Shown piece after piece: positions 1,385-8,147 of a stretch of DNA of 64,000 nt (positions are counted from its first letter, which is position 1; each line of letters opens with the position of its first letter). The translations under genes were made by a program, and so were the position numbers. The stretch comes from Couchioplanes caeruleus (GTDB lineage: Bacteria; Actinomycetota; Actinomycetes; Mycobacteriales; Micromonosporaceae): contig NZ_CP092183.1 of assembly GCF_023499255.1 (NCBI RefSeq), forward strand, positions 1,433,501 through 1,497,500. The letters are read 5' to 3'. The notes below the pieces were generated by a model. It did not search any database. It worked only from the letters and a program-made list of their open reading frames with translations, and was not told the DNA's origin.

Positions 1385-2839
1385 GTGCGCCGGGTCCCGT
1401 ACGGGCCGGTCCGCGACGGCTGGCGGCTCACCAACTACAGCCTCGGGCTGACCTACAACGACACCGAGCTGCCGGACGGGACGATGATCTCGTACTGGCA
1501 GGAGGGGCCGTACTACGAGTTCTCCGAGGCCGAGATCGAGGAGCTGGAGACGGCGACCTCGGTGCTGCACCAGATGTGCCTCGACGCCGGCGACTGGATG
1601 GTCCGGCAGTGCCCGCGGCGCACGCTCGAGGGCCGCCGCCAGGGCTACTTCGCCTCCGTGTGCACCCCGGAGAGCTGCTTCCTGACGAAGATCGGCATCC
1701 CGGAGTACGCGCACGAGCAGATCATCCGTACCTGGTTCGACGGCGACGCGGAGACCTGGACCCACCGGGACAAGGACCCCGACGGCACGGTCCCGATGCA
1801 GACGCCGGACTACTCGCCGAGCATCTACGGCCGCTTCGACCTCTGGTACAACGGCGCCGGCAGCGTCCCCCGGCTGCTCGAGTTCAACGCGCAGACCCCC
1901 ACGTCGCTGGTCGAGTCCGCGGTCATCCAGTGGCACTGGGTCGACCAGACCAACCTGACCCAGCACCCGTGGCGGCAGTGGAACTCCATCCACGACCGCC
2001 TCGTCGGCTGGGAGGCCGCCGACGGCGAGCCCGCCAACCCGGGCGCCTGGCGGCGCAACATCGGCAAGCTCCGCGAGGCCCGGCCCTGGCTGCCGGAGAA
2101 ACCGAAGATCTATTTCGCGTACGAGACGAGCGAGACGTCCGGTGAGGACCGGATGAACGTCGCCTACCTGATGGCCACCGCCGAGGAGGCCGGCTACCCG
2201 GTCGAGCTCATCGCCATGAGCCAGATCGGCTGGGACGTGGCGGGCGACCGCGTGCTCTTCGTCCCCGCCCCCGGCCAGGAGCACAAGGCCGAGCCGATCG
2301 ACGTGATCTTCATGCTGTACCCGTGGGAGTGGTTCTGGAACGAGGAGGGCGGCAAGGCCTTCTTCCGCAACATGGCCGACCCGGCGAAACGGGGCACGGT
2401 GTGGATCGAGCCTCCGTACAAGGCGGCGCTGCTGGGCAACAAGGCGCTGCTGCCGGTGCTGTGGAAGCTGTTCGGCGACGACCCCGAGCGCGGCAAGTAC
2501 CTGCTGCCGGCGTACTTCGCGGAGTCCTCGTCGGCGGCCAAGCTGACCAGCTACGCCAAGAAGCCCGTCTGGGGCCGTGAGGGCGGATCGGTCACCCTGG
2601 TCAAGGACGGGGTCACAATCACCGAACACCCCTCCGAGTACGGCGCGGACGGCCGGTTCGTGGTGCAGGAGCTGCTCGAACTGCCGTCGTACGACGGTCT
2701 GGAGGGGACGGTGCACCCGGTGATCGGCTCCTGGCTGATCGACGGCGAGCCGGCGGGCATGGGCATCCGCGAAGGGCTGGGCACGGACGGCCTGGTCACG
2801 AAGGACCGCTGCAACTTCCTGCCGCACCTCATCAGCTGA
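1385..2839 (+). CDS. Glutathionylspermidine synthase-family ATP-grasp protein (YgiC-like)
   Basis: A 484-aa protein starting at GTG 1385, three bases after the lipoprotein gene and so probably co-transcribed. The family fold is ATP-grasp, forming amide bonds with ATP. The region GRFDLWYNGAGSVPRLLEFN (about residues 149-168) and the C-terminal PVIGSWLIDGEPAGMGIREG match the glutathionylspermidine-synthase C-terminal domain. No N-terminal amidase domain is present, as in YgiC/YjfC. True glutathionylspermidine synthesis is unlikely in an actinobacterium lacking glutathione, so the natural substrate is unknown. Its last codons (HLIS-stop) form half of a 15-bp repeat that recurs at 4636. Confidence 0.8.
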   Translation: MRRVPYGPVRDGWRLTNYSLGLTYNDTELPDGTMISYWQEGPYYEFSEAEIEELETATSVLHQMCLDAGDWMVRQCPRRTLEGRRQGYFASVCTPESCFLTKIGIPEYAHEQIIRTWFDGDAETWTHRDKDPDGTVPMQTPDYSPSIYGRFDLWYNGAGSVPRLLEFNAQTPTSLVESAVIQWHWVDQTNLTQHPWRQWNSIHDRLVGWEAADGEPANPGAWRRNIGKLREARPWLPEKPKIYFAYETSETSGEDRMNVAYLMATAEEAGYPVELIAMSQIGWDVAGDRVLFVPAPGQEHKAEPIDVIFMLYPWEWFWNEEGGKAFFRNMADPAKRGTVWIEPPYKAALLGNKALLPVLWKLFGDDPERGKYLLPAYFAESSSAAKLTSYAKKPVWGREGGSVTLVKDGVTITEHPSEYGADGRFVVQELLELPSYDGLEGTVHPVIGSWLIDGEPAGMGIREGLGTDGLVTKDRCNFLPHLIS

Positions 2840-2840
2840 C
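2826..2840. repeat. 15-bp direct repeat, left copy (3' end of the ATP-grasp gene)
   Basis: ACCTCATCAGCTGAC is identical to positions 4636-4650. The left copy overlaps the last codons and stop of the ATP-grasp gene. The two copies bracket exactly one gene, as expected for an insertion that duplicated its target. Confidence 0.8.
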
Positions 2841-2853
2841 ACCGAGAGAGGAT

Positions 2854-2887
2854 CTTGCTAAAGTCTTTTGCAAAAGACTTTAGCAAG
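2854..2887. promoter_or_regulatory. 34-bp perfect palindrome, likely autoregulatory operator
   Basis: The left arm CTTGCTAAAGTCTTTTG and the right arm CAAAAGACTTTAGCAAG are exact reverse complements with no spacer. The site is AT-rich in a GC-rich genome and ends 9 bases before the GTG start of the following gene, with GGGAGG between. A bound dimer here would block transcription or ribosome access. The encoded protein has C-terminal winged-helix segments, so it could be its own repressor (inference). Confidence 0.75.
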
Positions 2888-2896
2888 GGAGGCGGC

Positions 2897-4630
2897 GTGG
2901 TCGGTCCGGAACTCGCGCGGCTTGTCGCCCTGCTGCGGCAAGCGCGTACCGACCTCATGGATGTCGAGGTCAAGGCGGCGGCCGGAGGGCTGCCGAAGTC
3001 GGTGCGGGACACGCTGAGCGCGTTCAGCAACGACCGAGGCGGCACGCTCCTCCTGGGGCTGGACGAGAATGACGACTTCCGTCCCGCCGTGGGCTTCGAT
3101 GCGGCGCGGATCCGGGATGCGCTTGCCTCAGCGTGTAGTGACGACCTGCATCCGCCCGTGCGCGCGGAGATTGACATCGTCCCCTTCGGGGGCTCGCTGG
3201 TGGTCGTGGGTGAGGTCGGCGAGCTCGACCCGCGCTTCAAGCCGTGTTACGTCGCCGCTCGCGGTGAATACAACGGGTCTTTCACCCGGGGTGGAGACGG
3301 TGACCGCCGGCTCACCGATTTCGAGATCCACCTCCTTCACACCAACCGCGGTCAGCCGGAGGACGACCGGCAGCCGGTCGCCAACGCTCTGCCGGAAGAC
3401 CTGGAGTCCGTGGAAGTGCGAGCTCTGGTCGACAGGGTTCGTCTCCGGCAACCGCGAGCTTTCGCCAATCTCTCGTCAGAGCAGGTGCTGCGCAGACTCA
3501 ACGTGCTTGCTGAGGATCAGGAGGGCCGGCTCCGGCCGACCCTCGGGGGGCTCTTGGCGCTCGGTGCGTATCCGCAGCAGTTCTTTCCTCAGCTCAATGT
3601 GACCTTCGTGGTCTATCCGGGGCTGTCAGCTGAGGATGTACCGGTCAATGGGCCCCGGTTCCTCGACAACAGGTCCTTCGACGGACCGATTCCCGTGATG
3701 GTTGATGAAGCCGTCACGGCGGTCCTTCGTAACACGTCCGTGCGGTCGTTCGTCGAAGGCGCTGGACGTACCGATGTGTACGACTACCCGGCAGAGGCTG
3801 TCCGCGAGGCGGTCGCGAACGCTCTGCTGCATCGGGATTACTCCCCGTACTCCCGAGGGGCGCCCGTGCAGATCACTCTGTATGCGGACCGACTGGTCGT
3901 TGCCAATCCGGGTGGACTGTTTGGCGCCGTGACCACGGACGACTTGGGCGGTGAGGGGGTCACGTCGACGCGTAATTCCGTGCTGGCGAAGTTGCTGCAG
4001 GACGTTCGTCTGCCGGAGAGCGGCCGCATGGTGTGCGAGAACCGGGCCAGCGGAATTCCGACGATGCTCCGTGAACTCCGCCGGATCGGATCGCCGCCAC
4101 CGGAGTTCCACAGTCGTATCACTCGCTTCAAGGTCGTCATGCCGAGGCATGCCCTCCTGGGTGACGAGACCATGAGGTGGATTGCCGGCCTTCATCAGAG
4201 GGGTCTCACACCGACCCAGCATCTGGCTTTGGCCGAGATGCGCGCAGGCCGCCCGGTGACCAACGGCTCCATGCGAAATCTGGGCCTGGAGGCGCACCGT
4301 GCGACCGCCGAGCTTTCCGACCTCGTCAACCGGGGTGTTGCGGTGCGGATCGGTGAACGGCGCCATGCTCGTTATGTTCTGGCCCCTGCCGATGGCAGTG
4401 CTGAACGCGGGTTCGAAGCACTGCCGCCCGCGAGGAGCGTCGAAGAGGAGGTGCTGGCCGCGTTCACGGATCAATCCGAGTTGAGTCGCCGGGAGCTGGA
4501 ACAATGTACGGGCCTGAGCTGGACGAAGGTTCTTCGAGCTTTGAACACGCTCGAGGCTCAGGGGCGGATTGCGTTCACTGCACCGGCCCGCTCACCCCAC
4601 CGACGCTATCGGCGCGTCGATGAGCGGTGA
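2897..4630 (+). CDS. Schlafen/AlbA_2 - HATPase - winged-helix protein (putative regulator or defence ATPase)
   Basis: A 577-aa protein from GTG 2897, chosen because GGGAGG precedes it; an in-frame TTG at 2855 would put the palindrome inside the coding region. An N-terminal AlbA_2/divergent AAA_4 domain carries EVKAAAGGLPKSVRDTLSAF then RGGTLLLGLDE. The middle has a GHKL-type ATPase_C-4 module (YPAEAVREAVANALLHRDYS, later VVANPGGLFG). The last 150 residues look like two winged helices. Such proteins are annotated as transcriptional regulators or RecG-like proteins, and some take part in defence. Base and codon use are visibly less GC-rich than the neighbours. With the flanking 15-bp repeats this points to recent acquisition. 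Confidence 0.82.
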   Translation: MVGPELARLVALLRQARTDLMDVEVKAAAGGLPKSVRDTLSAFSNDRGGTLLLGLDENDDFRPAVGFDAARIRDALASACSDDLHPPVRAEIDIVPFGGSLVVVGEVGELDPRFKPCYVAARGEYNGSFTRGGDGDRRLTDFEIHLLHTNRGQPEDDRQPVANALPEDLESVEVRALVDRVRLRQPRAFANLSSEQVLRRLNVLAEDQEGRLRPTLGGLLALGAYPQQFFPQLNVTFVVYPGLSAEDVPVNGPRFLDNRSFDGPIPVMVDEAVTAVLRNTSVRSFVEGAGRTDVYDYPAEAVREAVANALLHRDYSPYSRGAPVQITLYADRLVVANPGGLFGAVTTDDLGGEGVTSTRNSVLAKLLQDVRLPESGRMVCENRASGIPTMLRELRRIGSPPPEFHSRITRFKVVMPRHALLGDETMRWIAGLHQRGLTPTQHLALAEMRAGRPVTNGSMRNLGLEAHRATAELSDLVNRGVAVRIGERRHARYVLAPADGSAERGFEALPPARSVEEEVLAAFTDQSELSRRELEQCTGLSWTKVLRALNTLEAQGRIAFTAPARSPHRRYRRVDER

Positions 4631-4635
4631 GCACA

Positions 4636-4650
4636 ACCTCATCAGCTGAC
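4636..4650. repeat. 15-bp direct repeat, right copy
   Basis: Second copy of ACCTCATCAGCTGAC, five bases after the stop of the inserted gene. Removing 2841-4650 would restore an uninterrupted 3' end for the ATP-grasp gene followed by GTGGGGTCCGGG. Confidence 0.8.
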
Positions 4651-4741: not shown

Positions 4742-6187
4742 GTGGCCCAGCCGACCCACGCCCGTGACGACGCCGTCGTCGTCGCCGCGCGTGCCGGTGA
4801 CCGGGCCGCGTGGAACGAGCTGGCGCGTCGTCATCTGCCGATGGTGTACACGCTCGTCCGGCAGGCGCTGCACGACGATCCGGGCGTGGACGACGTGGTG
4901 CAGGACGTCATGGTGCGCGCGCTGCGGCAGCTGTCCGACCTGCGGTCGCCGGGCAGCTTCCGGCCGTGGCTCGCCGCCATCGCCGTACGCCAGATCGGCA
5001 GCCACCTGGCCCGGGAGGAGGTCGCCGCCCGCCGCGCGGTGCCGCTCGGCGAGGTGACCGGCCGTCCGGATGCCGGCGCGGAGGTGGAGGGGCCGGCGCT
5101 GCTCCGGGCCGAGCTGGCGGGTCAGCGCCGCCAGGTGGGGCACGCGACCCGGTGGATGGGCGCGGACGAGCGGACCGTGTTCTCGCTGTGGTGGCTGGAG
5201 ACGGTCGGCGAGCTGACCCGCCGTGACGTCGCCGCGGCCCTCGGGACGAGCGTCGCTCATGCTGGCGTACGGATCCAGCGGATGCGTGAGCAGCTCGAAG
5301 CCGCCCGGCGGGTCGTCGCGGCGCTCGAGGCGATGCCCGGTTGTGGCGTCCTCGGCGAGGTCGCGGCGGAGTGGGACGGGGTCCCGGGCGGGTACTGGCG
5401 GAAACGGCTGACCCGGCACGTCGAATCCTGCCGGGTCTGCGGCGCCGCCGCCGGTGGGCTCGTACCGCTGGACCGCCTGCTGGCGGGGATCGCGCTGCTT
5501 CCCGTGCCCGTCGCGCTGACGGCCGCGGTGCTCGGCAAGACGTCCGCGGGCGGTGTGGCCGTCACCTCGTGGCTGGGCCGGGTCGTGCAGGTGGCCGTCG
5601 CTCATCCGCTGGCGGTGACGGTCGCGTCCGGGATGCTGGTCGTCGGCGTCACGGCGTCCGCCGCCGCCGTCGTGCCGTTCACCCGCTCGAGCGTCGCCGC
5701 GGCGCCGGCGCTGCCCCGGCCCGGGCCGCCGCAACCGGATCCGCCGGCCGGGGCGCTGCGTACCGGCCGGGTGTCGCTGGAGTCGGCCACCTCGGCCGGC
5801 CGGTTCGTCGCCGTGGCGGGGGACCAGGGTGTGCTCGTCACGATCGGCCCGGGGAGCGACGCCGCGACGCGCGAGCGAACCACCTTGATCGCGGAGGCCG
5901 GGCTCGCCGACGCGTCGTGCTTCTCGTTCCGCCGGCCGGACGGGCGCTACCTGCGCCATTCGTCGTTCCGGCTGCGGCTCAGCGCGGACGAGGGGACCGT
6001 TCTCTTCCGGCGGGATGCGACGTTCTGCGGTCAGGACGGCTTCGTGGACGACTCGGTGTCGCTGGAGTCGTACAACTACCGTGGATTCTTCCTGCGCCAT
6101 GTCGGCGATCAGCTGTGGATCGACCAGTTCGACGGCAGCGACGCGTTCCGGGCCGACAGCTCGTTCCGGGTGCGACCGCCACGCTGA
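4742..6187 (+). CDS. ECF sigma factor fused to zinc-finger, membrane segment and AbfB carbohydrate-binding domain
   Basis: A 481-aa fusion from GTG 4742 (GAGG upstream). Residues about 15-95 form sigma region 2 (DDVVQDVMVRALRQL) and 130-185 region 4 (RDVAAALGTSVAHAGVRIQR). HVESCRVC near 226-233 resembles the H-x3-C-x2-C zinc finger of anti-sigma factors. Hydrophobic stretches at about 245-275 and 286-313 should span the membrane. From about 340 to the end are AbfB-type repeats (RYLRHSSFRLRL ... GTVLFRRDATF; FFLRHVGDQLWIDQF). An outside arabinan- or xylan-sensing domain is therefore tied to an inside sigma factor. The next gene is a xylanase, a plausible target (inference). Confidence 0.85.
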   Translation: MAQPTHARDDAVVVAARAGDRAAWNELARRHLPMVYTLVRQALHDDPGVDDVVQDVMVRALRQLSDLRSPGSFRPWLAAIAVRQIGSHLAREEVAARRAVPLGEVTGRPDAGAEVEGPALLRAELAGQRRQVGHATRWMGADERTVFSLWWLETVGELTRRDVAAALGTSVAHAGVRIQRMREQLEAARRVVAALEAMPGCGVLGEVAAEWDGVPGGYWRKRLTRHVESCRVCGAAAGGLVPLDRLLAGIALLPVPVALTAAVLGKTSAGGVAVTSWLGRVVQVAVAHPLAVTVASGMLVVGVTASAAAVVPFTRSSVAAAPALPRPGPPQPDPPAGALRTGRVSLESATSAGRFVAVAGDQGVLVTIGPGSDAATRERTTLIAEAGLADASCFSFRRPDGRYLRHSSFRLRLSADEGTVLFRRDATFCGQDGFVDDSVSLESYNYRGFFLRHVGDQLWIDQFDGSDAFRADSSFRVRPPR

Positions 6188-7654
<1,467 letters not shown>

Positions 7655-7676
7655 CGACGCCCTGACCGCATCGCAC

Positions 7677-7706
7677 CCGCCGGTCCGGCTCCTGCCGGGC
7701 CGGCGG
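7677..7706. terminator. GC-rich hairpin between convergent genes
   Basis: CCGCCGGTCCGGC pairs with GCCGGGCCGGCGG across a 4-base loop (one G-U pair). It lies between the xylanase and the convergent membrane-protein gene. There is no U-tract, as is common for actinobacterial terminators. Confidence 0.5.
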
Positions 7707-7715
7707 TGTGTCGTC

Positions 7716-8147
7716 TCAGGGGCGCGGACGGTTGCGCCAGAGCCACCAGAGGCCGACGAACGGCAGCACCAGCGGGACGTAGCCGTACCCGCTGCCGTAG
7801 CGGGACCAGACCGTGTCGTCCGAGAACGCGACCGCGTCCGCGATGCTCAGCGTGCCCACCACCAGCACGCCGATCAGCTCGATCGAGCAGCTGGTCAGCG
7901 CGAGCAGCCGGCCCCGGACGCCGCCGATCGCCAGACCCACGGTCGCCGCGATGTAGACCAGGCCGGCGAACGCCGACAGCAGGTACGCCAGCGGCGCCTC
8001 GGAGAAGTGCGTGGTGATCTGGACCAGGGCGCGGGCGCTCGCCGACAGCGCGAAGATGCCGTACACGAGGAGCAGGACCCGGCCGAGGCCGGTGCCGATG
8101 GCCGCGTCGCGGGGGCGGGCCGGGGTCGGGGTGGGCTGCTCAGCCAC
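7716..8147 (-). CDS. Conserved hypothetical integral membrane protein
   Basis: A 143-aa protein with a charged, Pro-rich N-terminus (residues 1-20) and four predicted transmembrane helices (about 22-44, 52-75, 80-105 and 118-138), ending in a basic RNRPRP tail. Its start overlaps the end of the upstream membrane-protein gene by 8 bases, so the two are probably translated from one message and may work together. I do not recognise a named family. The hydrophobic pattern and codon bias support a real gene. Confidence 0.75.
   Translation of the reverse strand: MAEQPTPTPARPRDAAIGTGLGRVLLLVYGIFALSASARALVQITTHFSEAPLAYLLSAFAGLVYIAATVGLAIGGVRGRLLALTSCSIELIGVLVVGTLSIADAVAFSDDTVWSRYGSGYGYVPLVLPFVGLWWLWRNRPRP

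What the first reader, a model, noticed from the sequence alone, without database searches (positions are those of the whole stretch)
2826..4650. One-gene insertion flanked by 15-bp direct repeats at the 3' end of an ATP-grasp gene
ACCTCATCAGCTGAC occurs at 2826-2840 (overlapping the last codons of the ATP-grasp gene) and again at 4636-4650. Between them is exactly one gene, an AlbA_2-HATPase-winged-helix protein with lower GC than its surroundings, plus its palindrome. The left copy restores the host stop codon, as in att-site integration or target duplication that spares the host gene. No transposase, integrase or terminal inverted repeat is visible, so the way it moved is unknown. This may be an undescribed minimal mobile cassette.
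Basis: partly seen in the sequence, partly recalled or inferred. Interest (0 to 1): 0.75.

Follow-up and report, generated by a model that had tools for sequence, protein, structure and literature searches.

The report
Accessory gene between duplicated gene ends
A single accessory gene with its own palindromic control site sits behind an ATP-grasp gene, bracketed by two copies of that gene's last 15 bases; relatives show that such copied host-gene ends recur around this gene family, more likely as scars of the cell's own recombination than as marks of a new mobile element.

Summary
The repeat is real. ACCTCATCAGCTGAC lies at 2826-2840 (end of the ATP-grasp gene) and 4636-4650, bracketing one lower-GC gene (AlbA_2 + HATPase_c_4, predicted winged helices) and its 34-bp palindrome. 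The nearest relative has the same arrangement with a 13/15 right copy. The gene is accessory: of 67 congeneric genomes, all with the ATP-grasp gene, 3 carry a close copy at this site, 4 beside mqnA, 60 none. One relative looks like a deletion scar; the gene's dS is the highest of 44 ORFs compared, so the site seems to turn over. Across 97 homologue loci, flanking direct repeats are in excess: 9 of 97 at score >=28, against 1 of 355 gene-bounded and 0 of 1296 interval controls. The clearest are copied host-gene ends: 517 bp of rplE-rpsN, 135 bp of a permease gene, an amidase-like gene end, half a tRNA-Leu. Lengths differ and I saw no common core; no integrase lies near where positions could be compared. 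I favour additive host recombination anchored on a conserved gene (homology-facilitated illegitimate recombination, or a circularised fragment plus single crossover). An integrase-less element moved in trans is not excluded. Known kind, unusually clear family-wide example.

The parts
1385..2839 (+). ATP-grasp gene (GSP_synth, PF03738), the conserved anchor gene
   Evidence: Pfam E 5.9e-96; found in 67 of 67 congeneric genomes
2826..2840 (+). Left copy of the direct repeat = native end of the ATP-grasp gene with its stop codon
2854..2887 (.). Perfect 34-bp palindrome ending next to the ribosome-binding site; likely private operator of the gene
   Evidence: its half pattern (up to 2 mismatches) is found in 6 of 67 genomes, at one place each, in front of this gene; 0 of 300 shuffles reach it
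2897..4630 (+). Accessory gene: SLFN_AlbA_2 + HATPase_c_4 protein, 577 aa, predicted winged-helix folds at the C-terminus
   Evidence: The GTG start at 2897 is inferred from the GGGAGG just upstream; the longest ORF starts at 2855
4636..4650 (+). Right copy of the direct repeat (duplicated end of the ATP-grasp gene)
   Evidence: diverged copy at the same place in N. flavum
4742..6187 (+). ORF with sigma-70 region 2 and AbfB domain; at this site in N. flavum, no match at the site in the other relatives read
6308..7654 (+). ORF resembling a secreted glycoside hydrolase (name from my reading of the sequence, not tested); also part of the variable stretch
7716..8147 (-). Convergent gene that follows the ATP-grasp gene directly in several relatives: right border of the variable site

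Best explanation
An accessory regulator-like gene with its own palindromic operator occupies a variable site between two conserved convergent genes. It was added there by ordinary host recombination. A donor fragment carrying 'end of the anchor gene + accessory gene' pairs with the recipient's anchor gene by homology, and its other end is joined illegitimately inside that gene; or the fragment first circularises and enters by a single crossover. Either way the anchor gene's end is followed by the new gene and then by a second, partial copy of that end. The length of the copy is set by where the illegitimate join fell: about 15-18 bp here, 517 bp in the longest case. The gene is then lost or exchanged by deletion and recombination in the flanks. 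Shown: the repeat, the accessory distribution, single-copy relatives for two other members, the excess of repeats around the family, a probable deletion scar. Inferred: the recombination route, the donor, and that the palindrome is an autoregulatory operator.
For: Excess of repeats around the family: 9 of 97 usable loci against 1 of 355 and 0 of 1296 controls. G449 has a 517-bp identical repeat of rplE 3' part + rpsN; its right copy starts at the gene's stop codon, and each of the 20 other genomes searched has one long match to that stretch, against two in G449. G050 has a 135-bp 96% repeat of a permease gene end + terminator; 1 of 67 genomes has a second long match, and G079 and G075 run permease-terminator-next conserved gene with nothing between. 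In the four cases with a protein-gene end (window, L139, L274, L070) the repeat ends near the anchor gene's end and starts at a different point inside it. No PF00589 hit near in the four genomes whose positions can be compared: G000, G012, G050, G014. W. consettensis carries the gene without the sigma-AbfB gene; its sister G057 keeps an 18/21 match to the palindrome's left part where the gene would be, 0 of 2000 shuffles as good. The gene's dS between G000 and N. flavum, 0.456, is the highest of 44 ORFs. Print: hotspots without mobile elements and homologous recombination at their flanking core genes (PMC5635113, passages); HFIR, and circularisation plus single crossing-over (PMC3240628, abstract).
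Against: No donor tract shows in the ATP-grasp gene: identity to W. consettensis does not rise towards the 3' end. The 15-bp repeat here is too short to say much by itself. L080's repeat is a tRNA half on both sides, a classic integrase target. Not all repeats are gene 3' ends: by my reading L290's is the 5' end of a gene and L118's a host repeat; L068, L090 and L106 are unassigned. The accessory-gene control (DUF4365) has only 22 usable loci, 0 with a repeat (one apparent hit was a script fault), so specificity to this family is not shown. The high dS may partly reflect the low GC3 of the gene, and the 44 ORFs probably include antisense ones. Which of the two terminators behind the copies in G449 is native is unclear: one relative resembles the left, another the right.
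Confidence: 0.5

Rival explanations
1. A minimal integrative element (gene + att core) moved in trans by a tyrosine integrase of a phage, plasmid or larger island; host-gene ends are its att sites.
For: Ends of protein genes and of a tRNA are typical att sites; a Streptomyces island uses the 3' end of bacA (PMC4057263, abstract). L080's repeat is, by my reading, the 3' half of tRNA-Leu on both sides. The ATP-grasp tree does not join the two lineages that hold the gene at the same spot: starred branches force at least 2 changes, which two arrivals at one site would explain as well as one arrival and losses.
Against: No PF00589 hit near the locus where positions could be compared; serine integrases were not sought. 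Repeat lengths of 15 to 517 bp and no common core seen. No repeat at or above score 15 in W. consettensis or at the four mqnA sites.
Confidence: 0.2
2. Short-homology event or chance: the 15-bp repeat is a replication-slippage or end-joining scar, or partly coincidence, and says nothing about how the gene came.
For: About 1% of control genes and intervals score as high; short repeats at variable segments are usual (PMC2884548, passages).
Against: The right copy sits directly behind the gene and has a 13/15 counterpart in N. flavum; much longer repeats flank relatives of the gene.
Confidence: 0.2
3. Target-site duplication by an unknown transposase acting in trans.
For: A short exact repeat at both ends.
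Against: No terminal inverted repeats among the pairs shown; repeat lengths vary from 15 to 517 bp.
Confidence: 0.05

Closest known systems
Small variable segments flanked by direct repeats (PMC2884548, 2010; passages read)
   Same: Short segment present or absent between conserved flanks, with a repeat mostly under 30 bp at its base; homology-assisted illegitimate recombination is discussed there
   Different: Described within E. coli, S. aureus and S. pyogenes; here one gene family shows repeats that include copied host-gene ends up to 517 bp
[quoted passage not shown] passages read)
   Same: Accessory turnover at a fixed site without mobility genes
   Different: Their model is double crossover in both flanks, which would leave no duplicated end; the repeat here suggests one homologous and one illegitimate join
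Islands integrating at gene 3' ends, e.g. PAISt at bacA in Streptomyces (PMC4057263; abstract read)
   Same: Insertion at the 3' end of a protein gene in an actinomycete
   Different: PAISt has its own tyrosine recombinase and an 8-bp palindromic site; here one gene, no recombinase, no common core seen
TrlG of Photorhabdus, an AlbA_2 + HATPase_c_4 protein (PMC7554251; passages read)
   Same: Same two Pfam domains in the same order; genetically shown to restrict growth at raised temperature
   Different: TrlG is in a short three-gene operon; no palindrome or flanking repeat is mentioned in the passages that I saw

Membership tests
Site-specific integrative element (ICE, IME, phage satellite) | Own integrase or recombinase | tested here: not met
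   One ORF fills the interval, no recombinase domain in it; nearest listed PF00589 hit on the chromosome about 286 kb away
Site-specific integrative element (ICE, IME, phage satellite) | Flanking att repeats at a conserved target, with empty sites in relatives | tested here: inconclusive
   Repeat present; most relatives read lack the gene at the site, but no common core seen among relatives of the element and no empty site with the same right flank was found
Site-specific integrative element (ICE, IME, phage satellite) | Circular excised form | not testable with these tools
   No reads available
Transposon or IS cargo | Terminal inverted repeats and a transposase | tested here: not met
   None joining the ends among the 25 of 41 inverted pairs shown; no transposase domain in the gene
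Integron gene cassette | attC site and integron integrase | not tested
   No attC search was run
Small variable segment / HGT hotspot without mobility genes | Presence-absence of a small segment between conserved flanks | tested here: met
Small variable segment / HGT hotspot without mobility genes | Entry by homology-assisted recombination | tested here: inconclusive
   Repeat anatomy fits; no donor tract seen in the ATP-grasp gene
AlbA_2 + HATPase_c_4 proteins (TrlG-like, PDB 3lmm) | Both domains in this order and the overall fold | tested here: met
   Pfam both above cut-off; Foldseek best match 3lmm_B, E 2.8e-23, but TM-score only 0.34-0.35; model mean pLDDT 81.6

The most novel reading that the evidence does not exclude
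A family of one-gene, integrase-free elements spreads in actinobacteria by using the end of a host gene as its own homology arm: the element carries a copy of the anchor gene's end, can leave as a circle by recombination between the two copies, and re-enters at the same gene in another cell by single crossover, the cell supplying all enzymes.
Probability: 0.15. Interest if true: 0.75.

Novelty: new member of a known kind. Interest (0 to 1): 0.42.

Why it matters
Many bacterial hotspots gain and lose genes without any recognised integrase, and how the genes get in is an open matter (PMC5635113, passages). Here one gene family leaves readable scars: partial copies of the anchor gene whose length would mark where the illegitimate join fell. 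If they are what I think, they give a direct sequence signature for additive, homology-anchored gene gain that can be counted across genomes.

Tried and rejected
Rejected: the idea that the gene is as old at this site as the ATP-grasp gene. Of 39 genomes whose site was read (24 and 20, 5 in both), 3 hold it there; the other 28 of the 67 were not read at the site, but one search lists a close copy in only two of them (G071, G080), and that copy lies by mqnA. Rejected: a phage-defence label from PADLOC. Its Argonaute-type hits probably reflect shared parts; some prokaryotic Argonautes carry PF04326 (PMC6299218, passages). NCBIfam gave nothing for the protein.

Led nowhere: a donor tract in the ATP-grasp gene; the sigma-AbfB gene alone at the site, not seen among loci read; tRNA genes (4 of 51 loci hold one; L118, L139, L274 and L290 were not scanned; the tRNA half at L080 was named from its sequence, ARAGORN finds no complete gene there). 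D. fulvum's 298-bp repeat at 78% is a second helR start beside the first and was not counted; L091, L092, L100, L104 and L112 have wider or partial-gene repeats that fall outside the 400-bp test or outside the 97.

Dropped rows and faults: L295 from the 98 loci (masked run of N). L330 from the DUF4365 control (contig-end locus, flanks overlapped through my script's assumption) and 7 control loci with short flanks. W. consettensis (L063) was tested with a wrong gene start; with the right start it scores 13, not 9, so the counts at 15 and 28 do not change. That 13 is a 15/16 match between the ATP-grasp gene's interior and a stretch just behind the gene which G057 mostly shares, so I read it as chance. 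L077/L094 and L100/L101 are near-identical pairs counted twice in the 97; W and L055 are the same site in two species. The cross-locus null contains repeats between related loci and was not used. In one search the later loci L139, L274 and L290 were not yet included. In one search the tree's group count left most rows out; it was redone with every row labelled (same answer, 2).
Full report
What is there. The two 15-mers are exact and the only exact copies in the window. Between them lies one ORF, 2897-4630 from its likely GTG start, preceded by a perfect 34-bp palindrome that ends at the ribosome-binding site. The protein has SLFN_AlbA_2 and HATPase_c_4. The model (mean pLDDT 81.6) shows helices and short strands at the C-terminus that I read as two winged helices. 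Its best structural match is 3lmm, E 2.8e-23, with a low TM-score of about 0.35. Residues that I take for the ATP site (N308, H312-R313-D314, G339-G340) are invariant in 22 aligned homologues (motif assignment recalled).

The palindrome. Its half pattern with up to 2 mismatches occurs in 6 of 67 congeneric genomes, at one place each and in front of this gene. Upstream inverted repeats beat all 300 shuffles in 10 of 21 loci tested, all ten being the close homologues (window, N. flavum, two Dactylosporangium, G071, G080, G019, G004, P. maris, W. consettensis); none of the 11 remoter ones does (best 9 of 300). I infer a private operator for autoregulation.

Is it an insertion here? The ATP-grasp gene is in 67 of 67 congeneric genomes. 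Close copies of the accessory gene (75% identity or more) are in 7 of 67: 3 behind the ATP-grasp gene (window genome, N. flavum G012, W. consettensis G048) and 4 beside mqnA (G004, G019, G071, G080). In several relatives the ATP-grasp gene is followed at once by the homologue of 7716-8147, so the sigma-AbfB and hydrolase-like genes look like additions too. N. flavum is collinear at 93.9% over 12.9 kb and has the same arrangement; its right copy reads CGCACCTCATCGCCTGAC, like the ATP-grasp ends of other species.

History. The protein tree groups the three ATP-grasp-site copies apart from the mqnA and Dactylosporangium copies with modest support (89/86 and 92/94; the W. consettensis row is only 104 aa). 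The ATP-grasp gene tree of 39 genomes does not join G000/G012 with G048; starred branches force at least 2 changes, so either two arrivals at one site or one arrival and several losses. Loss probably happens: G057, sister to G048, lacks the gene but keeps an 18/21 match to the start of the palindrome region, reached by 0 of 2000 shuffles. Between the window genome and N. flavum, dS is 0.456 for the gene and 0.08-0.20 for six neighbours, the highest of 44 ORFs in the window. This suggests exchange of the allele after the genomes split, with the caveats of its low GC3 and of probable antisense ORFs among the 44.

Does the pattern recur? I collected homologue loci from three searches and aligned 400 bp before with 400 bp after each gene. 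Of 98 loci, 97 were usable; 9 score 28 or more and 12 score 15 or more, the window at 15 (one gene start mended without effect on the counts). Controls: 0 of 1296 same-length intervals score 28 or more; 1 of 355 gene-bounded controls does; one-sided Fisher p 2.7e-11 and 5.9e-6. A small accessory-gene control, DUF4365, gave 0 of 22. The 9 are L139, L090, L106, L080, L274, L290, L118, L070, L068. Two near-identical pairs are in the 97, none of them among the 9.

What is duplicated. L274 (G449): 517 bp, identical, rplE 3' part and all of rpsN, right copy starting at the gene's stop codon; each of the 20 other genomes searched has one long match to that stretch, and the sequence behind rpsN is variable there. 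L139 (G050): 135 bp of a permease gene end and terminator, 96%; among 67 genomes only G050 has a second long match; in other genomes the same site is empty or holds DUF4365 genes. L070: the end of an ORF that I read as an amidase gene. L080: 60 bp that I read as the 3' half of tRNA-Leu (CAG). L290: 122 bp at 78%, by my reading the 5' end of a glycosylase-like gene. L118: looks like a dispersed repeat. L068, L090, L106: unassigned.

Mechanism. The repeats share no length and no core that I could see, and the clearest run from differing points inside an anchor gene to about its end. One homologous and one illegitimate join, or circularisation and a single crossover, gives this anatomy. A site-specific integrase in trans would need many different cores, though the tRNA half fits it best. 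PF00589 hits were listed for 12 genomes or records; in G000, G012, G050 and G014, whose coordinates I could compare, the nearest on the same contig is over 200 kb from the gene or there is none on that contig. For the other 8 I could not match contig numbers to the loci with certainty.

Literature. The paper searches (0 listings in 69 and 95, 3 in 96) showed no description of repeats around this gene family in their listings. That is a statement about these searches only.

Verdict. An ordinary kind of accessory insertion whose family leaves unusually clear scars; the mobile-element reading stays open at low probability.

Noticed in passing
4742-6187: One ORF joins an ECF-type sigma-70 region to an AbfB (arabinofuranosidase B) domain; 66 of 67 congeneric genomes have a match at E <= 1e-40, many of them partial.
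   Followed up: no
L060, L061 and the mqnA loci L212-L241: The stretch between mqnA and a helR-like gene is itself variable: an MFS-type transporter gene, nothing, or the accessory gene lies there in different genomes (gene names by my reading).
   Followed up: partly
L090:5874-5973 and 7479-7578: A 100-bp repeat with a long imperfect hairpin stands before and directly behind the gene in Corynebacterium parakroppenstedtii.
   Followed up: partly
L097:5824 and 7687: GTTTCACGTGAAAC, a parS-like palindrome (name recalled), occurs on both sides of the gene in Corynebacterium haemomassiliense.
   Followed up: no
L097:9608-9955: The one gene-bounded control with a strong flanking repeat (score 44).
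   Followed up: no
permease site: L139, L243, L244, L249-L251: A hotspot that holds nothing, a DUF4365 gene or the AlbA_2 gene in different congeneric genomes.
   Followed up: partly
L106:5624-5839 and 7527-7738: A repeat of about 215 bp (82%) of unknown kind flanks the gene in a Propionibacteriaceae MAG.
   Followed up: no
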